Shown: positions 23,522 to 32,219 of the stretch, in pieces
Layout: each line of letters starts with the position of its first letter
How positions within the stretch are numbered: position 1 is the first letter of the stretch
Source: Gammaproteobacteria bacterium
Lineage (GTDB): Bacteria; Pseudomonadota; Gammaproteobacteria; Steroidobacterales; Steroidobacteraceae
Assembly (NCBI GenBank): GCA_003140135.1
Contig: PLIX01000074.1
Coordinates: 1-32,219, forward strand
DNA: 32,219 nt
Reading direction: 5' to 3'
The notes under the pieces: generated by a model
Databases searched by the model: none
What the model was told of the DNA's origin: nothing
The model's input: only the letters and a program-made list of their open reading frames with translations
Program-made: the position numbers and the translations under genes

Positions 23522-23872
23522 ATGCGAGCGTGCGTTTGAACTGTTTGTTCTGCCGCGGCCGGCGCCCCGGTCTTGGGTGCTGCCCGCGCGGCGGACACGG
23601 ACAAGTCCGCCTCACTCGGCGACGCGCTGGCCGTCTTGCAATCGCACCATTGCGTCGAGCTTACCCACGCTTTCGCTTCGGATATCCCGCACTGGAAGGG
23701 TGCATCGGATGAGACGGTCAAGGCGCTCAACAGGGTTGAGAAGGATGGCTTTTGGATCAATGAGTACTGCCACGTCGGGCAGTGGGACGCGCATGTGGAT
23801 GCCCCGGCACATTTTCATGCAGCCCTGCACACTGTCGACGCCATCGATCGCGTCTTTGCGATCGCGCCGTGA
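23522..23872 (+). pseudogene. Cyclase-family (kynurenine formamidase-like) protein remnant
   Basis: ATG at 23522 after AAGGAG reads MRACV then in-frame TGA (23537), then TVCSAAAAGAPVLGAARAADTDKSASLGDALAVLQSHHCVELTHAFASDIPHWKG...FWINEYCHVGQWDAHVDAPAHFH (cyclase HxDxxxHF-type motif), then stops at 23872, well short of a typical cyclase. Confidence 0.6.
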
Positions 23873-24264
23873 GCGCGGCCGCGATACCGATCGAGTACGC
23901 CGACGCTTCGCGCGAAGTGCGCGCGGTGTACGACGACATCATGGCGACGCGCAAGACCGACTGGATCAACAACTTCTGGAAGGTGCTCGCGCACGACCCT
24001 GCGACTCTGCGGCGGATGTGGGCCAACGTGAAAGAAGTCATGGCCCCCGGAGCGCTCGATCCCATGACGAAGGAGCTCATCTACATTGCCGTTAGCGTGA
24101 CGAACGGCTGCCGCTACTGCATCGCTTCGCACGGTGCCGGCGCCACCGCCAAGGGTATGACGCCGGCGCAGCATGCCGAGCTTCTGGCCGTCATTGGACT
24201 TGCCAATGAGACGAATCGCTTTGCCGTCGCGCTTGATATGCCAATCGACGAGCGGTTTCGCTGA
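23869..24264 (+). CDS. Carboxymuconolactone decarboxylase/AhpD-like family protein; GTG start overlapping the upstream stop
   Basis: MTKELIYIAVSVTNGCRYCIASHGAGATAKGMTPAQHAELLAVIGLANETNRFA: CxxC...H CMD motif. Confidence 0.85.
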   Translation: MSAAAIPIEYADASREVRAVYDDIMATRKTDWINNFWKVLAHDPATLRRMWANVKEVMAPGALDPMTKELIYIAVSVTNGCRYCIASHGAGATAKGMTPAQHAELLAVIGLANETNRFAVALDMPIDERFR

Positions 24265-24282
24265 AGATAAGGAGAGATCAAT

Positions 24283-24714
24283 ATGGCCATGACACCCGCG
24301 AACACCCCGCGCACCTCGCCACAGGACACGCCCATGATCGACCTCGATCCCGAAGGCGCCCATCACTACCGCTGGGATGATCTGCCCAAAGAGCCGTTGA
24401 AAGGCACCATTTCGCGCCGTCTCATCACGGGCGAGCGCACGATGATCGCGCAGATCTTCCTCCAGAAGGGCGACGACGTGCCGCGGCATTCGCATGAAAA
24501 TGAGCAGGTGACCTACGTCTTGAAGGGCGCTTTGCAGTTCTGGCTGGGGGCAAACGATGAGCGCGAGCTCATCGTCCGGGCGGGTGAAGTGCTCGTAATC
24601 CCGTCGCATCTTCCGCACCGGGCGCTGGCGCTCGAGGACACTCTTGACGTCGACGTCTTCTGTCCGCCACGGCAGGACTGGCTCGCGGGCACCGACTCTT
24701 ATCTAAGAAGCTGA
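24283..24714 (+). CDS. Cupin domain protein
   Basis: AQIFLQKGDDVPRHSHENEQVTYVLKGALQFWLG...VRAGEVLVIPSHLPHRALALEDT. Classic cupin motifs. Confidence 0.88.
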   Translation: MAMTPANTPRTSPQDTPMIDLDPEGAHHYRWDDLPKEPLKGTISRRLITGERTMIAQIFLQKGDDVPRHSHENEQVTYVLKGALQFWLGANDERELIVRAGEVLVIPSHLPHRALALEDTLDVDVFCPPRQDWLAGTDSYLRS

Positions 24715-24715
24715 A

Positions 24716-25837
24716 GTGGCGGCGTATGACGTTGCGCCGGGGGTTGCCGCGGCGCTGCAGAATTTCACGCTTCCGGAGCGGCTCGGTTTCGGGCTCGTGC
24801 CTGCCCCGCTCATGTTCACAGCCGAATGGTCGGACGGCGTTTGGACTCGCGGGACCCTCCAGCCGTTCGGCCCGATTGAAATTCTCCCCGGTGCCCGCGC
24901 GCTGCAATACGCGGAGCTTGTGTTCGAGGGTTTGAAGGCCTACTGCGTCGGCCGTTCCTGGCCCAACCTCTTTCGTCCGCGGGAAAATTGGCAACGCTTC
25001 AAGCGCTCGGCTGAGCGGCTTTCCATGCCTCCTGTCACCGAGGGTCTCTTTTTTGAAGCCATTGACGCGGTCGCCGGCTCCTGTCGCGCCTTTATCCCGC
25101 GCGAATCGGGACGCGCGCTCTACCTGCGGCCATTCCTGTACGGCGTCGAGGATGGCTATCTGTTGCGCAATTCCAACCGCTTTCGCTTCACCCTCATCGC
25201 AAACCCCGTGGAGAGCTATGCCGTGGGCCCGATGCGCGTTGCCCTCGAGCGTGTCGATGTGCGCGCGGCTGTGGGCGGCGTGGGAGCCGCGAAGGCGGCG
25301 GCAAACTATGCGGCGTCGCTGCGCGCATCCAACGCGGCAGTGGCACGCGGCTACACGGTCGCCCTGTGGCTCGATGCGCGCGAACAGCGCTTCATCCAGG
25401 AACTCTCGGGCATGAATCTCTTCGCCGTCATAGACGGCGAACTGCACACTCCGGAACTCGACGGCACCATCCTGCCCGGCATCACTCGTGACTCGCTGCT
25501 CATCCTGGGCAGATATTTGGGCTACCGGGTGATCGAGCGACCGATAGCGATCGATGACCTCCTGGTGCAGGTTGCCGCCGGCGAGTGCAGCGAACTCTTC
25601 GCCTGCGGCACTGCGGCGATTGTCTGCCCCATCAGTGTATTGGCGGACTCGAATTCACGGGAGCACGTTCCTAAGGAGCTCGACGTTGTGGCGTCGCGGC
25701 TGCGGGAGGCGCTGCTTGCAATCCAGGAGCGCCGCGCCAATGATCCATTTGGCTGGACGCGTGACGTGGGACCGCTGCCGCAGAACTGCGATTGGGTTTC
25801 GGCTGCAAACCTGGACCTGCGGCGCGGGGTCGGATAA
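24716..25837 (+). CDS. Branched-chain-amino-acid aminotransferase-like PLP enzyme (fold type IV); GTG start
   Basis: LVFEGLKAYCVG; FRPRENWQRFKRSAERLSMP; LYLRPFLYGVEDGYLL; GGVGAAKAAANYAASLRA (PLP Lys); GYTVALWLDAREQRFIQELSGMNLFAVIDG; ILPGITRDSLL. Confidence 0.88.
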   Translation: MAAYDVAPGVAAALQNFTLPERLGFGLVPAPLMFTAEWSDGVWTRGTLQPFGPIEILPGARALQYAELVFEGLKAYCVGRSWPNLFRPRENWQRFKRSAERLSMPPVTEGLFFEAIDAVAGSCRAFIPRESGRALYLRPFLYGVEDGYLLRNSNRFRFTLIANPVESYAVGPMRVALERVDVRAAVGGVGAAKAAANYAASLRASNAAVARGYTVALWLDAREQRFIQELSGMNLFAVIDGELHTPELDGTILPGITRDSLLILGRYLGYRVIERPIAIDDLLVQVAAGECSELFACGTAAIVCPISVLADSNSREHVPKELDVVASRLREALLAIQERRANDPFGWTRDVGPLPQNCDWVSAANLDLRRGVG

Positions 25838-26001
25838 TGCAGCAGGATCCCATGCCTGCCGGCTTCACCGCCGGTGCGCTGTGGAGGGAAATCATGCAAG
25901 CCTTGGGCGATCTTGAGTGAATTTCCAATAAGGGTCCCAAGGTCGGGAACAGGACTTGCTTAGTCACTTCAACGCTTTAAAAAACTGTAAGGAGTACCGC
26001 A

Positions 26002-26217
26002 ATGGCAGACCGCAAACCCTGGCAACCAAGTCTTGACACCGAACCGGAGGCAAATGCCTTCGCCAACCGGACCCAAGGCGACGGCTCATTCAAGAAGAAG
26101 ATCCGCGATCCGGAGGCAGACACCTCGCCCCTGGAGGGATCCAAAGATATCTCCGATGACGATTCGCTGCTCGACGTGGTCGCTGATGAGAGCAGAGACC
26201 CAGCAGCGAAAAGATAG
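26002..26217 (+). CDS. Small hydrophilic hypothetical protein
   Basis: 71-aa ORF preceded by AAGGAG (about 25990); highly charged, low complexity MADRKPWQPSLDTEPEANAFANRTQGDGSFKKKIRDPEADTSPLEGSKDISDDDSLLDVV. No recognised domain. Confidence 0.5.
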   Translation: MADRKPWQPSLDTEPEANAFANRTQGDGSFKKKIRDPEADTSPLEGSKDISDDDSLLDVVADESRDPAAKR

Positions 26218-26260
26218 CCCCGGCCGAGATCGATTGGCGCAGCGCTGATCGTAGACGCAG

Positions 26261-26647
26261 ATGCTCGATCACTTCGGTATGACGGTCGCGGACTTCGACC
26301 GATCCAAGGCGTTTTACCAGAAAGCGCTCGCGCCACTGTCGATTACGTTGATAAAAGAGCTGACCGCGGCAGACACCGGCGGCCACGCACATGCAGGATT
26401 CGGAAGCGACGGTAAACCTTACTTCTGGATCGGGGACGCAGGCCGACCTTCCGGCACGGTGCACATTGCCTTCGCAGCGCCGAGCCGCGACCATGTCCAC
26501 ACGTTCTATCGCGCGGCCCTTGCCGCGGGCGGCAGGGACAACGGCACTCGGGGCCCGCGTCCGCACTACCACGCCAACTATTTTGGCGCGTTCGTCCTCG
26601 ATCCCGACGGCAACAACATCGAGGCCGTGTGCCACAGGCCTGAGTAG
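26261..26647 (+). CDS. VOC (glyoxalase/bleomycin resistance) family protein
   Basis: MLDHFGMTVADFDRSKAFYQKAL; VHIAFAAPSRDHVHTFYRAALAAGGRDNG; YFGAFVLDPDGNNIEAVCH. Confidence 0.88.
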   Translation: MLDHFGMTVADFDRSKAFYQKALAPLSITLIKELTAADTGGHAHAGFGSDGKPYFWIGDAGRPSGTVHIAFAAPSRDHVHTFYRAALAAGGRDNGTRGPRPHYHANYFGAFVLDPDGNNIEAVCHRPE

Positions 26648-26950: not shown

Positions 26951-28339
26951 ATGACTAGACTGTCTGTCGTGCCGACGCCGATGTCGACTCTCGATGATGA
27001 CGCCTGGGATGACCTTCTGAGCTTCATCGAGGAGCGCCGCGTGATTCCAATCGTGGGACCGGAGCTCCTGCAGGTCGCAACCGACCGCGGCCCGCGCCTC
27101 CTGTACGACTGGCTCGCCGAGAAACTCGCCGTCCGGCTCAATGTCGATGTCGCCTCACTGCCGCAGCCCTATACGCTGAACGACGTAGTCTGCTGGTTTC
27201 TTGCCGCCCGCGGCCGCCGCGAAGAAGCGTATGTGCGAGTGCGCAGCATCCTGAAGGATGCGAACTTCGAACCGCCGCAGGCGTTGCGTCATCTGGCCGC
27301 GATTACGGACTTCGACCTGTTCGTTTCCACGACATTCGATCCGTTGCTTGAAGGGGCAATCAACCTGCAGCGCTTCGGCGGAGCGCCGACAGCCGAAGTA
27401 CTCTCCTACTCTCCGAACCGCGTCACCGATCTGCCCTCAGAGCGCGACCGTCTGCAGCGACCGGTGGTCTACCATCTCTTCGGCCGGGTTTCCGCCTCGC
27501 CGACCTACGTGATCTCCGATGAGGACCTGCTGGAATTCATCTGCGCGCTGCAGAGCGAGCACCTGGCGCCGGAGAAGCTCTTTCACGAGCTCGAACACAA
27601 TCATCTCCTCTTCATCGGCAGCAATTTCACGAACTGGCTCGCGCGCTTGTTCCTGCGCATGGCGAAGCGCCAGCGCCTGTCAGATCCGCGCGACGTGGGC
27701 GAAGTGCTGGCGGATGACCACTCCAGCGAGGATGACCGGCTCATGGCCTTTCTGCAGCAGGTGAGCGTGCGCACGCGCATCTACATGGGCGCCGAACGCT
27801 TCGTCGAGGAGCTGCACTCCCGCTGGCAGGCGCGCCGCAAGCCTGCGGCGTCCGCCGCAGGGCCTGGAGCGACCGCGCGCTTCCTGCCGCCGGCGCGAGA
27901 AATGCCGGACAACGCGGTGTTCATAAGCTACGCGCGCGAGGACCTGGCGGCAGTGCAGCTCATCAAGGCCGGGCTCGAGGCGGCCGGCATCACCACCTGG
28001 TTCGACTTCGATCGGCTGGAAGTGGGCGACGACTACGATCGCAAGATCCAGCGCAACATCGCCCGCTGCTCGTATTTCATTCCGGTGGTGTCGGTGACCA
28101 CGCAGCGCCGCCTCGAGGGGTACTTCCGTCGCGAGTGGAGTTACGCCATCGATCGGGTGCGCAACATGGCCGACGGTGCGCTCTTCATCCTCCCCGTTAC
28201 CATCGATGCGACGAGCGCGGCGGAGGCACTGGTGCCGGATAAGTTCAAGGCGCTGCATTTCACGCATCTGCCCGGTGGCGAGGTGCAGGCAGACTTCGCG
28301 CAGCGTCTGACCGACTTCATGCAAGCGCGCCAGCAATGA
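26951..28339 (+). CDS. SIR2-like / TIR domain fusion protein
   Basis: N-terminal SIR2_2-like region: RRVIPIVGPELLQV, FDLFVSTTFDPLLEGAINL, PVVYHLFGRV, HNHLLFIGSNFTNWLARLFL. C-terminal TIR: NAVFISYAREDLAAVQLIKAGLEAAGITTWFDFDRLEVGDDYDRKIQRNIARCSYFIPVVSVTTQRRLEGYFRREWSYAID. Start is ATG 26951 or 26981. Confidence 0.82.
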   Translation: MTRLSVVPTPMSTLDDDAWDDLLSFIEERRVIPIVGPELLQVATDRGPRLLYDWLAEKLAVRLNVDVASLPQPYTLNDVVCWFLAARGRREEAYVRVRSILKDANFEPPQALRHLAAITDFDLFVSTTFDPLLEGAINLQRFGGAPTAEVLSYSPNRVTDLPSERDRLQRPVVYHLFGRVSASPTYVISDEDLLEFICALQSEHLAPEKLFHELEHNHLLFIGSNFTNWLARLFLRMAKRQRLSDPRDVGEVLADDHSSEDDRLMAFLQQVSVRTRIYMGAERFVEELHSRWQARRKPAASAAGPGATARFLPPAREMPDNAVFISYAREDLAAVQLIKAGLEAAGITTWFDFDRLEVGDDYDRKIQRNIARCSYFIPVVSVTTQRRLEGYFRREWSYAIDRVRNMADGALFILPVTIDATSAAEALVPDKFKALHFTHLPGGEVQADFAQRLTDFMQARQQ

Positions 28340-31300
28340 ACGCATTGCCCGAAAACGCGGCTGCCCACTCCCCTACTCTCGAGGCGCCCAACGTCGATGA
28401 GCGCAATCCCTGGCTGGGCCTCGCGTCCTTCACGGAGGAGACGCGCGCCTACTTTTATGGCCGCGAGGAGGAGGTCGCTGAGCTTGCTCGGCGCGTGCAG
28501 CGCAAACTCCTGACCGTGCTCTTCGGCCAATCGGGTCTCGGCAAGACTTCCATCCTGCGCGCCGGGCTCGTCCCGCGACTGCGCTCACAGGGCTATTGCC
28601 CGGTCTATGTGCGCATCGATTACGCGCGCGAGGCCCCTGAGCCGGCGGTGCAGATCAAGCAGGCGATTGCCCAGACTGCGCGGCGCTCGGGGCAGTGGAC
28701 TCAGGCGGGTGTCGCGGTCGAGGGGGAGTCGCTGTGGGAGTTCCTGCATCATCGCGATGATGTGCTGCACGATGAGTTCGGCGCGACGCTCATTCCGCTA
28801 CTGATCTTCGATCAATTCGAGGAAATCTTCACGCTCGCGCAAAGCGACGACTTCGGGCGCGCACGCGCGGCGCGCTTCATCGCGGATCTTGCGGACCTTG
28901 TCGAAAATCGTCCGCCGAAGGAGCTCGAGACCAAGCTCGAGGAAGACGAGTCGGCCGCCGAGCGCTTCGATTTCGCACGCAGCGACTATCGCGTGTTGAT
29001 TGCCCTGCGCGAGGACTATCTCGCCCCGATTGAAGGCCTGAAGTCCGCGATGCCGAGCATCACGCAGAACCGTTTGCGGCTCGCTCCGATGACCGGACAG
29101 CAGGCGCTGGCCGCGGTCATGCGCCCCGGTAAGCGCTTGGTCTCCGAGGAGGTTGCAGCCGCCATCGTGCGTTTCGTCGCCGGCGGCGCCGAGATCGCCA
29201 ACGCCGAGGTGGAACCCTCGCTCCTGAGCCTCATCTGCCGCGAGCTGAATGACACCCGCATCGCCCAGGAACGCAACGAGATCTCGCTTGATCTTCTGGC
29301 GGGCTCGCACGCCAGCATCCTGAGCAACTTCTACGAGCGCTCACTCGCCGACCAACCGCCGGCCGTACGCCACATCATCGAGGATGAGCTGCTCACCGCC
29401 TCCGGTTTTCGCGAAAACGTCGCCGAGGAGCGCTTGCTGAGCAGCTTCGCAGCCGCCGGCGCCGCCCCCGATACGCTCGCGGTGCTGGTCAACCGCCGTC
29501 TGCTGCGGATCGAAGAGCGCCTTGACATCCGCCGCGTCGAACTCACGCACGACGTGCTCTGCAGCGTCGTGCGCAGCAGCCGCGATCTGCGCCACGAGCG
29601 CGAGGCGCGCGATGCCACCGAGCGGCTGCTCGCCGAGCAGCGCGAGCGCGAACTCGCAGCACGCCGCTCGCTGGTGCGTGCGCGGCAGGTCGCCGTCGTG
29701 TGTACGGCGCTCGCCATCGGCGCGCTCGCCGCCGCGGTTCTGGCCTATATCAGTAACGAGCGTGCCCATCGCGCCGAGCGCCAGGCGGAGCAGACGCGCG
29801 TCGCAGCCGAACAGGCGCGCGGTCAGGCCGAACATCTCCTTGCTTACCTGGCGGATGACTTCGCGCGCGAGCTGGAAAGTTTCGGCCGGCTGGATGTGGT
29901 TGCGGAACTGTCCAAACGTCAGGTCGATTACTTCAAGGCGCTGCCGGCGGAATTGAAGGGCCCGGAAACCACGCGCAACGGTGCGCTTGCGCTGGTGCAC
30001 TACGCAAAGGCGATGCGCACACTGGGGAATATGCCCGCGGCGGGCCCCGCATCGGCGGAGGCATTGCAGCTGCTTGAGCAGTTGCAGCACGACGGTGACA
30101 CGTCCGAGGCGACGACCATTGCGCTCGCGAGTGCCATGACGGTCGAGGCCAGGGTCCTCAATAACCAGCAGAACTCGGCGGCCCTGCCCACCGCAATGCG
30201 CGCGGTGGCGCTGCTGAAGCCACTCGCCGAAGCGCCGAATGCCTCGGTCGCCGTACGCAGCGCGTATGTTGAGGCACTCGTGCATGCAGGCTTCGAGCAG
30301 GCGAACTCCGTGAGCCTGATCAAGGACGCAGTCGCGACGCTACAGCTTGCCATGCGCACCGCCGCAGCGCTCGGCGCCCGGGATCTCACGAATATCCAGA
30401 TGGCAGCCCAATACGCGGAGGCCGGAGCCTGGCAGACCGGCGCGCTGGGTAATCTCGGGCGCGTTGAGGACGCCCGACGCGTCGGCGCGGACGCGGGCGC
30501 CGTGGTGGAAAAAGTGCTCGACCTGCGCCCCGGGTATCTTCTCGCTCTGCATGCGCAGCAGGTCATGACAGACTCTCTCGGCGGCCTTGCGATTATTGAT
30601 ATGCGTCCAGCGGAGGCGGTGGAACTCGAAAAGCGCAGCGTGGCAATCTCGCACACCCTCATCAAGCTCGATTCCAAGAACACCGTCTCATACAACAATT
30701 TGGCGGTAGCTTTAAACGAGCAGGGCTGGGCGAGCTGGCAGGCGGGGCGGCCTCGAGAGTCGCTGGATTATTCGCGCCAGGCCCTGGAGGCCATTGGTCA
30801 TGCGTCAAAAGCCGGCGCGTCGTTTGTGCTCAACAATACCGTCTATCCCACGGTGATCAGGGCCACGCAGCAGGCTGATATCGGAGACACCGCCGCGGCC
30901 GCCGCCTCGCTCACCGCAGCCACGCGGGAACTGGACAGCGTGCGCCAGAGCGAACCTAACAGCCGGTTTATGCCGGTCTATGGCCAGTGCCTGCTCAAAT
31001 TCGGTGAAGGCACCCTAGCCATGTGGCGTGGCGACTTTGCCGGGGCCCGGCGCGCAGAGACAGAAGCCGTGGGCCTCATGCAGGCCTCCACTGCGCATGG
31101 AGCCACAGAGGAATTCTGGAAGACCGCGTGCGTTGCCTTTGGCGTCGAACAGGCGGGCCAGGCCGAGTACATGCTCGGCGATGCTGCCGCAGCCGAGAAG
31201 AGCATGCGCGCGGCGCTGGACTCGCATAAGCACTGGCCCACGCATAATGACCTTGACCGGCGCGATGACGCGCGCATGGCGACGCTGCTCGCCGTGGCGC

Positions 31301-31617
31301 TTGCGCGTGAGGGACGCTTGGCTGATGCCGAGCATGTGATCACTCCAGTGGTGAAGTTTCATCGCGAGCTCGCGGCCCGCAATCACGGCGACGAATGGCA
31401 GCATGTGGAATTCGCGAGTGCGCTTTACGCGCAGGCGCTTGCCGACAAGCGGCAGCGCCCGGCACTCTTGAAGGAGGCCACTGCGCTCATCTCTGCCGTA
31501 CCTGCGGAAATGCGCGATTTGCACAGCGTACGCCTGTGGCGCGATCGCATTCGCGAGGAACTGCACGCCCGCACCGCCGCAGTGGCGCGCGGCGCGGCGG
31601 AGCGGGGCGCCGGGTGA
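28336..31617 (+). CDS. nSTAND1-type P-loop ATPase with TM segment and C-terminal TPR-like helical region
   Basis: NPWLGLASFTEETRAYFYGREEEVAELARRV; Walker A LFGQSGLGKTSILRAGL; Walker B LLIFDQFEEIF; winged-helix-like RLLRIEERLDIRRVELTHDVLCSVV; TM VAVVCTALAIGALAAAVLAYI; long TPR-like C terminus. ATGA overlap with the upstream gene. Confidence 0.87.
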   Translation: MNALPENAAAHSPTLEAPNVDERNPWLGLASFTEETRAYFYGREEEVAELARRVQRKLLTVLFGQSGLGKTSILRAGLVPRLRSQGYCPVYVRIDYAREAPEPAVQIKQAIAQTARRSGQWTQAGVAVEGESLWEFLHHRDDVLHDEFGATLIPLLIFDQFEEIFTLAQSDDFGRARAARFIADLADLVENRPPKELETKLEEDESAAERFDFARSDYRVLIALREDYLAPIEGLKSAMPSITQNRLRLAPMTGQQALAAVMRPGKRLVSEEVAAAIVRFVAGGAEIANAEVEPSLLSLICRELNDTRIAQERNEISLDLLAGSHASILSNFYERSLADQPPAVRHIIEDELLTASGFRENVAEERLLSSFAAAGAAPDTLAVLVNRRLLRIEERLDIRRVELTHDVLCSVVRSSRDLRHEREARDATERLLAEQRERELAARRSLVRARQVAVVCTALAIGALAAAVLAYISNERAHRAERQAEQTRVAAEQARGQAEHLLAYLADDFARELESFGRLDVVAELSKRQVDYFKALPAELKGPETTRNGALALVHYAKAMRTLGNMPAAGPASAEALQLLEQLQHDGDTSEATTIALASAMTVEARVLNNQQNSAALPTAMRAVALLKPLAEAPNASVAVRSAYVEALVHAGFEQANSVSLIKDAVATLQLAMRTAAALGARDLTNIQMAAQYAEAGAWQTGALGNLGRVEDARRVGADAGAVVEKVLDLRPGYLLALHAQQVMTDSLGGLAIIDMRPAEAVELEKRSVAISHTLIKLDSKNTVSYNNLAVALNEQGWASWQAGRPRESLDYSRQALEAIGHASKAGASFVLNNTVYPTVIRATQQADIGDTAAAAASLTAATRELDSVRQSEPNSRFMPVYGQCLLKFGEGTLAMWRGDFAGARRAETEAVGLMQASTAHGATEEFWKTACVAFGVEQAGQAEYMLGDAAAAEKSMRAALDSHKHWPTHNDLDRRDDARMATLLAVALAREGRLADAEHVITPVVKFHRELAARNHGDEWQHVEFASALYAQALADKRQRPALLKEATALISAVPAEMRDLHSVRLWRDRIREELHARTAAVARGAAERGAG

Positions 31618-32096
31618 GTCCCGCGGCGCCGCCGCCGCTTTTTCATTCAAGCGGACAGCCCGGCTTCTCGAAGGTCGTCAGCACGGATCCGCGCCACGTC
31701 GCGGCGCGCAAGTTTGAGCGCGAGATCCACGTGCGTTTCGCGCCTGAAGCCTGCACGGTACACACTCCCGAAGGCCTCGTGCATGCCAGGGCCGGCGATG
31801 CGATCGTGACGGGCACCGCCGGAGAGACGTGGCGCGTCTCGCAGGCGCGGTTCCTCCACAAATACCGGCCGGTGCCACCCGTATTGGCGGGAGAGGCAGG
31901 CGCTTACATGAGCCTGCCCAATCGCATCCTTGCGCTGCAGATGCAGGAGCCCTTCGAAGTGGTGCTGGCGGATGGCATATCGCACCTCACGGGTCGCGCC
32001 GGCGATTGGCTCGTCGACTACGGCGATGGCAGCCTGGGGATCGTCACCCAACCGATCTTCGCCACGACCTACGAAATCCTCGACGAGCCTTCCTAA
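31614..32096 (+). CDS. Small protein with duplicated PGDYG-like motif
   Basis: GTG start overlaps the upstream TGA (GTGA). Contains ARAGDAIVTGTAGETWRVSQARFLHKYRPV and TGRAGDWLVDYGDGSLGIVTQPIFATTYEIL. Confidence 0.7.
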   Translation: MSPAAPPPLFHSSGQPGFSKVVSTDPRHVAARKFEREIHVRFAPEACTVHTPEGLVHARAGDAIVTGTAGETWRVSQARFLHKYRPVPPVLAGEAGAYMSLPNRILALQMQEPFEVVLADGISHLTGRAGDWLVDYGDGSLGIVTQPIFATTYEILDEPS

Positions 32097-32097
32097 G

Positions 32098-32219
32098 ATG
32101 GCACTGCATCAAGCAATCCAGCGCCTGCTGCTCCTCGGTGTGCGGCTGCACACGGTCCCCGCGCCGCCTGTACCTCGACCACCGCAAAGGCTCACACCGC
32201 TCATTGCCGCCATCGCTCC
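32098..32219 (+). CDS. Start of an unidentified fourth ORF of the operon (truncated by the window)
   Basis: ATG one base after the upstream TAA; frame open to the window end: MALHQAIQRLLLLGVRLHTVPAPPVPRPPQRLTPLIAAIA. Confidence 0.4.
   Translation, partial: MALHQAIQRLLLLGVRLHTVPAPPVPRPPQRLTPLIAAIA

What the first reader, a model, noticed from the sequence alone, without database searches (positions are those of the whole stretch)
26951..32219. Candidate TIR/SIR2-like + nSTAND1 conflict operon with PGDYG-like partner and unseen fourth gene
Seen: three complete ORFs on one strand joined by ATGA (28336) and GTGA (31614) overlaps, plus a fourth starting 1 bp after the third. Products read as SIR2-like/TIR fusion, P-loop STAND ATPase with TM and TPR-like region, and a duplicated PGDYG-like small protein. 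Established: TIR and SIR2-like domains are NAD-depleting effectors in Thoeris, Avs- and DSR-type systems, and STAND ATPases act as sensors. Inference: here the effector is a separate polypeptide from the STAND sensor, with an accessory protein, so this may be an undescribed multi-gene arrangement. Whether it is already catalogued cannot be judged without a search.
Basis: partly seen in the sequence, partly recalled or inferred. Interest (0 to 1): 0.85.

Follow-up and report, generated by a model that had tools for sequence, protein, structure and literature searches.

The report
STAND–TIR alarm operon with membrane partner
A soil bacterium carries a four-gene operon that looks like an immune alarm: a sensor ATPase, a separate protein with an enzyme domain that probably consumes the cofactor NAD, and a probable membrane pore; the sensor-plus-enzyme core recurs in many other bacteria with swappable partner genes, and I found no catalogued system that matches it.

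Summary
The window is a whole contig that ends inside the fourth gene. Gene 1 is a SIR2_2–TIR_2 fusion, gene 2 is nSTAND1 + one TM + a divergent C-terminus, gene 3 is PGDYG, and homologues show that gene 4 is a ~345-aa double-SLATT (4-TM) membrane protein. The gene 1–gene 2 pair is a real conserved system: a genome scan found 353 relatives of gene 2. Nearly all of the best 80 loci have the SIR2–TIR gene directly upstream, and 58 of 80 scored junctions are the exact 4-base ATGA/GTGA overlap. The SIR2 half has lost its catalytic Asn (invariant Thr) and GxGxS motif in every member checked, including distant ones, while the TIR Glu is invariant, so TIR is the likely NADase. The slot beside the pair is modular: PGDYG + bare double-SLATT (window and 10 loci), SLOG-like domain + double-SLATT, or TPR-S + the same SLOG-like domain + nucleotide cyclase. 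PGDYG + double-SLATT also recurs beside unrelated TIR or STAND–TPR genes. Most likely this is a STAND-triggered, TIR/NAD-based conflict system with a membrane output. No PADLOC model matches it and I found no paper describing it. Defence is inferred, not shown.

The parts
26951..28339 (+). Gene 1: SIR2_2-TIR_2 fusion (462 aa from ATG), the putative NAD-acting effector
   Evidence: Pfam SIR2_2 E 2e-12 and TIR_2 E 1e-17; homologue directly upstream of gene 2 in nearly all of 80 loci
27317..27757 (+). SIR2-like domain, predicted catalytically dead; codon 27332-27334 is Thr where the catalytic Asn of TTNxD should be; GxGxS (before the Pfam match) replaced by VGPELL; the His position varies (H/Y/Q) in distant relatives
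   Evidence: Family alignments of 73 and 15 sequences; motif and Asn requirement from PMC12931631
27917..28276 (+). TIR domain; putative catalytic Glu in YFRREW (codon 28133-28135), invariant in the family
   Evidence: Pfam TIR_2; profile matches to NADase TIR structures incl. AbTIR, SPARTA, Cat1, SARM1; invariance
28336..31617 (+). Gene 2: nSTAND1 ATPase, one TM helix, divergent C-terminal region (1093 aa)
   Evidence: Pfam nSTAND1 E 5e-34; TM from residue 452
28525..28551 (+). Walker A (GQSGLGKTS)
   Evidence: sequence and conservation
28798..28824 (+). Walker B region (LLIFDQFEE)
   Evidence: conservation
29833..31614 (+). Putative sensor: C-terminal region with mostly 17-39% identity across loci against 67-85% in the ATPase
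   Evidence: 50-aa bin identities; weak TPR_17 only
31614..32096 (+). Gene 3: PGDYG protein (160 aa), two tandem copies of a small beta-rich unit
   Evidence: Pfam PGDYG E 3e-22; AlphaFold2 pLDDT 93 with repeated strand pattern
32098..32219 (+). Gene 4, N-terminal fragment cut by the contig end; full-length homologues are double-SLATT 4-TM proteins
   Evidence: 60% over 40 aa; profile E 1.5e-9; full-length model and Pfam

Best explanation
This is a STAND-controlled, TIR-based conflict system. The nSTAND1 protein (gene 2) recognises a trigger through its fast-diverging C-terminal region, oligomerises on ATP, and gathers the SIR2-TIR protein (gene 1) so that its TIR domains become active and consume NAD+. 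The SIR2-like half has lost catalysis and most likely serves as an NAD/ADP-ribose-binding or assembly platform. The NAD-derived product, or the NAD loss itself, then engages a membrane output: the double-SLATT protein (gene 4), which opens or disrupts the inner membrane, with PGDYG (gene 3) as its dedicated soluble partner. The likely outcome is growth arrest or death of the invaded cell. Shown here: gene content, motif states, conservation, coupling, modular partners, horizontal spread. Inferred: trigger, NADase activity, ligand, pore function, anti-phage role.
For: Conserved pair: 353 species-level relatives of gene 2, SIR2-TIR directly upstream in nearly all of the best 80, 58 of 80 junctions with the same 4-base overlap, pair kept in relatives only 29-36% identical. 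TIR Glu invariant and SIR2 Asn replaced by invariant Thr in all 15 sequences of the broad alignment. ATPase conserved, C-terminus divergent. Gene 4 is double-SLATT: a non-iterated profile of SLATT proteins from other loci of the same system matches 9 of the 10 gene-4 homologues (E 2e-9 to 5e-4), with one weak off-family match (E 0.03) among 6,861 ORFs; model of two long helical hairpins. The adjacent slot repeatedly holds nucleotide- or membrane-related genes: 10 loci PGDYG + SLATT, 12 of the best 80 (plus distant L018) SLOG-like-SLATT, 10 TPR-S-SLOG-like-cyclase, whereas SLATT_1 occurs in only 10 of 229 genomes of the class. PGDYG + double-SLATT recurs with a TIR gene and a protease in Caballeronia and with a DUF4062-NACHT-TPR protein in G381. 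SLATT was predicted earlier to be an ADP-ribose-derivative-regulated membrane effector (PMC9503650; PMC7159879). Spread across phyla: Verrucomicrobiota nest inside Pseudomonadota; patchy presence, 5 of 369 genomes.
Against: No experiment exists. The pair often occurs with none of these partners, so NAD depletion alone could suffice. The window's version lacks the SLOG-like domain that would bind an ADP-ribose ligand. Window neighbours are metabolic genes, not a defence island. No match in phage records and only one full-length homologue in plasmids. Which TIR residue is the catalytic Glu rests on motif spacing; HMMER's own alignment to AbTIR is ambiguous there.
Confidence: 0.55

Rival explanations
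1. Plain NAD-depletion suicide module: STAND activation makes the TIR destroy NAD+ and that alone stops growth; PGDYG and SLATT are separate add-ons or regulators with no signalling link.
For: Many loci have only the gene 1-gene 2 pair; TIR-based NAD depletion is an established effector mode (PMC12162218 and others).
Against: SLATT or cyclase partners are far commoner beside the pair than in genomes at large, and PGDYG-SLATT travels with other TIR/STAND genes.
Confidence: 0.25
2. Both NAD-acting halves are active: the SIR2-like domain is also an NADase or transferase despite its changed motifs.
For: Pfam SIR2_2 matches above its cut-off and the domain is strongly conserved; one active Avs5 SIR2 lacks the usual His (PMC12931631).
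Against: In that same study the Asn was essential; here Asn is replaced by Thr throughout and the GxGxS motif is absent.
Confidence: 0.08
3. Not defence: an environmental-stress or developmental cell-death signalling system of soil bacteria.
For: No defence island around the window; no PADLOC model; the hosts listed are mostly uncultured environmental MAGs.
Against: Patchy distribution, transfer across phyla and a fast-diverging putative sensor are typical of conflict systems.
Confidence: 0.2
4. PGDYG is a phage-derived bait or guard rather than an output subunit: it monitors phage relatives of the same fold and gates the pore.
For: PGDYG is related to phage families phrog_419, 1810 and 4502 and to phage protein models.
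Against: In this system it is strictly paired with the SLATT protein, and solo cellular PGDYG genes exist in other genomes.
Confidence: 0.12

Closest known systems
Thoeris (ThsB TIR plus ThsA SIR2-SLOG, or macro-domain forms)
   Same: TIR and SIR2-like domains, NAD-based logic, signal-then-effector layout; SLOG-like domains occur on partner genes in other loci of this family
   Different: SIR2 is fused to TIR and is degenerate; a separate nSTAND1 ATPase is the obligate partner; output is SLATT or cyclase, not a SIR2 NADase
Avs/AVAST STAND systems, especially Avs5 (SIR2-STAND)
   Same: STAND ATPase with divergent C-terminal sensor, NAD-acting effector
   Different: Effector and STAND are separate, translationally coupled genes; the SIR2 catalytic Asn essential in Avs5 is missing; effector is TIR
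SLATT (SMODS- and SLOG-associating 2TM) effectors, predicted by Burroughs et al. and Kaur et al.
   Same: Gene 4 family carries two SLATT units; neighbours are TIR and other nucleotide-linked genes as predicted
   Different: Bare double-SLATT without SLOG, tied to PGDYG; a STAND/SIR2-TIR pair as the controller
STAND conflict systems with a TIR encoded separately (e.g. bDLD3 STAND-FGS plus bDLD3-TIR, PMC8195603)
   Same: Effector recruited from a separate gene by a STAND protein
   Different: No shared adaptor domain found on genes 1 and 2; SIR2-like domain on the TIR protein instead; different third components

Membership tests
Thoeris | ThsA protein with catalytic SIR2 (or macro) plus SLOG domain | tested here: not met
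   No such gene in the window operon; SIR2 domain lacks Asn and GxGxS; only a weak ThsB match to the TIR part (E 7e-5)
Thoeris | TIR protein producing a cyclic ADP-ribose signal | not testable with these tools
   TIR present; product unknown
Avs/AVAST | Single polypeptide: N-terminal effector, STAND ATPase, C-terminal sensor | tested here: not met
   Effector is a separate gene in the window and in the homologous loci; no Avs model matched
Avs/AVAST | STAND ATPase with intact Walker motifs | tested here: met
   nSTAND1 E 5e-34; Walker A/B conserved
SIR2-type NADase effectors (DSR, Avs5, ThsA) | Catalytic Asn in TTNxD and GxGxS loop | tested here: not met
   Invariant Thr at the Asn position; VGPELL-type loop; Asn requirement from PMC12931631
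TIR NADases | TIR fold with conserved catalytic Glu | tested here: inconclusive
   TIR_2 E 1e-17; Glu of YFRREW invariant; alignment to AbTIR locally ambiguous; activity untested
SLATT effectors (gene 4) | SLATT 2TM domain by profile | tested here: met
   SLATT_1 E 2.7e-5 in L047, just under the curated cut-off; profile of neighbouring SLATT proteins E 2e-9 to 5e-4 for 9 of 10 homologues; helical hairpin model. Only 40 residues of the window's own copy are visible
Any PADLOC 2.0 defence system | Full-length model matches for its proteins | tested here: not met
   Only partial TIR-domain matches for gene 1, none significant for genes 2-4
DefenseFinder catalogue | System rule match | not tested

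The most novel reading that the evidence does not exclude
A widespread, uncatalogued family of STAND-TIR second-messenger immune systems in which a pseudo-sirtuin-TIR protein makes an ADP-ribose signal and the receiver is exchangeable: SLOG-like-SLATT pores, SLOG-like-cyclases that relay a second nucleotide signal, or, as here, a PGDYG receptor shared with phages that gates a bare double-SLATT pore.
Probability: 0.22. Interest if true: 0.87.

Novelty: new variant of a known kind. Interest (0 to 1): 0.63.

Why it matters
It links three loosely connected ideas with a directly testable locus: STAND sensors that act through a separate TIR protein, pseudo-sirtuin domains kept without catalysis, and SLATT pores as receivers of NAD-derived signals, a long-standing prediction without a clear worked example that I could find. 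The swap of SLATT for a cyclase behind the same SLOG-like domain suggests where the ligand is read. It also gives a functional context for PGDYG, a fold common in phages with no solved relative found here.

Tried and rejected
Extending the contig to the right: impossible, as the window is the whole contig; solved instead through homologues. Foldseek of the gene-4 and PGDYG models against PDB: no significant match. Iterated profiles merged SLATT and cyclase families through a shared SLOG-like domain, so I repeated the test without iteration and with N- and C-terminal parts apart. Direct hhalign of gene 4 with single SLATT proteins was weak except for the Caballeronia protein. Antisense long ORFs in this GC-rich DNA, including 31647-32051 on the minus strand, were rejected as shadows of real genes. 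A promoter/terminator scan upstream of gene 1 found nothing.

Full report
Observation. The three ORFs, both 4-base overlaps and the fourth start codon are exactly where described. The window is a complete contig of a fragmented 3.7-Mb assembly (311 contigs), so the fourth gene is cut after 40 codons. Pfam confirms SIR2_2 + TIR_2, nSTAND1 and PGDYG. PADLOC gives only partial TIR-domain matches for gene 1 (short-Argonaute-associated TIR, SAVED-TIR, ThsB and others) and nothing significant for the other genes.

The conserved core. A scan of one genome per species with gene 2 found 353 relatives; the best 80 loci were fetched. Wherever the contig reaches that far, a SIR2-TIR gene lies directly upstream in almost every case, 66-87% identical to gene 1, while gene 2 homologues are 43-71% identical. 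In 58 of 80 scored junctions the two genes share the same -4 overlap. Much more distant relatives (29-36% identity) in other genomes, including Paraburkholderia, keep the pair. A tree of gene 1 puts Verrucomicrobiota inside Pseudomonadota, which means horizontal transfer, and only 5 of 369 sampled genomes of the class have a match. The tree is a quick one and the place of its long rows is unsure.

Active sites. In sirtuin NADases the GxGxS loop and the Asn of TTNxD are needed; Avs5 loses immunity with the Asn mutated, although its His can be replaced (PMC12931631). Here the loop reads VGPELL or similar, and the Asn position is Thr in every sequence of the 15-member alignment, close and distant; the His is Tyr or Gln in some distant members. 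The SIR2 half is therefore predicted to be a pseudo-enzyme. In the TIR half the Glu of YFRREW is invariant, with an Ala four residues on, as I recall for SARM1 (from memory, a lead rather than a test); the profile matches NADase TIR structures including AbTIR, SPARTA, Cat1 and SARM1. HMMER places the AbTIR Glu slightly differently, so this residue should be tested. Gene 2 has intact Walker A and B; identity to the window is 67-85% in the ATPase and mostly 17-39% in the C-terminal half, as expected for a sensor.

The fourth gene. Ten loci carry PGDYG directly after gene 2, and exactly those ten carry a ~345-aa gene after it; the window's 40-residue fragment is the start of that gene. Pfam gives SLATT_1 at E 2.7e-5 in the best member, just under the cut-off. 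A profile from the C-terminal 300 residues of SLATT proteins in other loci of the system matches nine of the ten gene-4 homologues, most of them across both halves, with one weak off-family hit among 6,861 ORFs. AlphaFold2 gives two long helical hairpins (pLDDT 80). I conclude that it is a double-SLATT protein.

A modular slot. Loci without PGDYG often have another partner beside the pair. Twelve of the 80 loci, plus the distant locus L018, have a longer protein with an N-terminal SLOG-like domain and double SLATT; SLATT_1 and SLATT_3 are both above cut-off in L088, L090 and L097. Ten have TPR-S, most of them with a recognisable nucleotide cyclase domain. Most lie directly downstream or divergently upstream; in L087 and L088 other genes intervene. 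A profile of the SLOG-like domain of the SLATT proteins matches the middle of the cyclase proteins (E 8e-12 to 2e-6): the same receiver sits on two different outputs. The SLOG label itself rests on weak Pfam matches. By contrast SLATT_1 was found in 10 of 229 genomes of the class. On the gene-1 tree the PGDYG label needs at least six changes on well-supported branches, so this module comes and goes.

PGDYG. The family is rare: above cut-off in 1 of 369 genomes in the class sample and 9 of 399 in the phylum sample. Two independent contexts repeat its pairing with double-SLATT. On a Caballeronia plasmid it overlaps a SLOG-like-double-SLATT gene beside a trypsin-like protease and a TIR gene. In genome G381 it lies between a double-SLATT-type protein and a DUF4062-NACHT-TPR protein. 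Seven other genomes have solo copies with no relative of gene 4 detected nearby. The predicted structure is confident (pLDDT 93), a tandem repeat of a small beta-rich unit without a PDB match, but with phage relatives by sequence and by fold.

Mechanism. The best reading is a STAND-activated TIR NADase whose product or NAD loss drives a SLATT membrane output, with PGDYG as the SLATT partner. Earlier work predicted SLATT as an ADP-ribose-derivative-regulated membrane effector and noted TIR-SLATT neighbours in phages and GTPase systems (PMC9503650; PMC7159879). Because the bare gene-4 form lacks SLOG, either PGDYG or the pseudo-SIR2 domain may read the ligand; this is speculation.

Novelty and limits. 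Each component class is known or predicted; this combination, the pseudo-SIR2-TIR effector and the swap of receivers were not found in PADLOC or in the open-licence papers searched. Directly relevant work by Burroughs and Aravind (2020) was not held, their 2015 survey was not read, and DefenseFinder was not at hand, so prior description cannot be excluded. Anti-phage activity is inferred from form and distribution only.

Noticed in passing
G000:C295:1507-1929, G000:C5:8819-9253, G000:C231:470-874 (L021-L023): Three further TIR-containing genes in the same genome, TIR 43-48% identical to gene 1; homologues in Verrucomicrobiota are TIR-TPR proteins that sit in clusters beside the same core (e.g. 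L080, L093).
   Followed up: partly
L017:4406-8066: A relative in which the SIR2-like part, the TIR part and nSTAND1 are three overlapping ORFs; either a natural split of gene 1 or a frameshift in the assembly.
   Followed up: no
L042:6622-7903: The gene 1 homologue matches in two pieces in this MAG, probably an assembly error or a decayed copy.
   Followed up: no
L118-L124: Solo PGDYG genes in seven large proteobacterial genomes, scoring far better against the Pfam model (152-165 bits) than the operon copies; no relative of gene 4 detected nearby, function unknown.
   Followed up: partly
L022:105-1088: Near one of the extra TIR genes in the window's own genome lies a nucleotide cyclase-FHA gene.
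   Followed up: no
window 23782-26647: Upstream genes are metabolic (carboxymuconolactone decarboxylase family, cupin, class IV aminotransferase, glyoxalase); no defence genes seen near the operon.
   Followed up: partly
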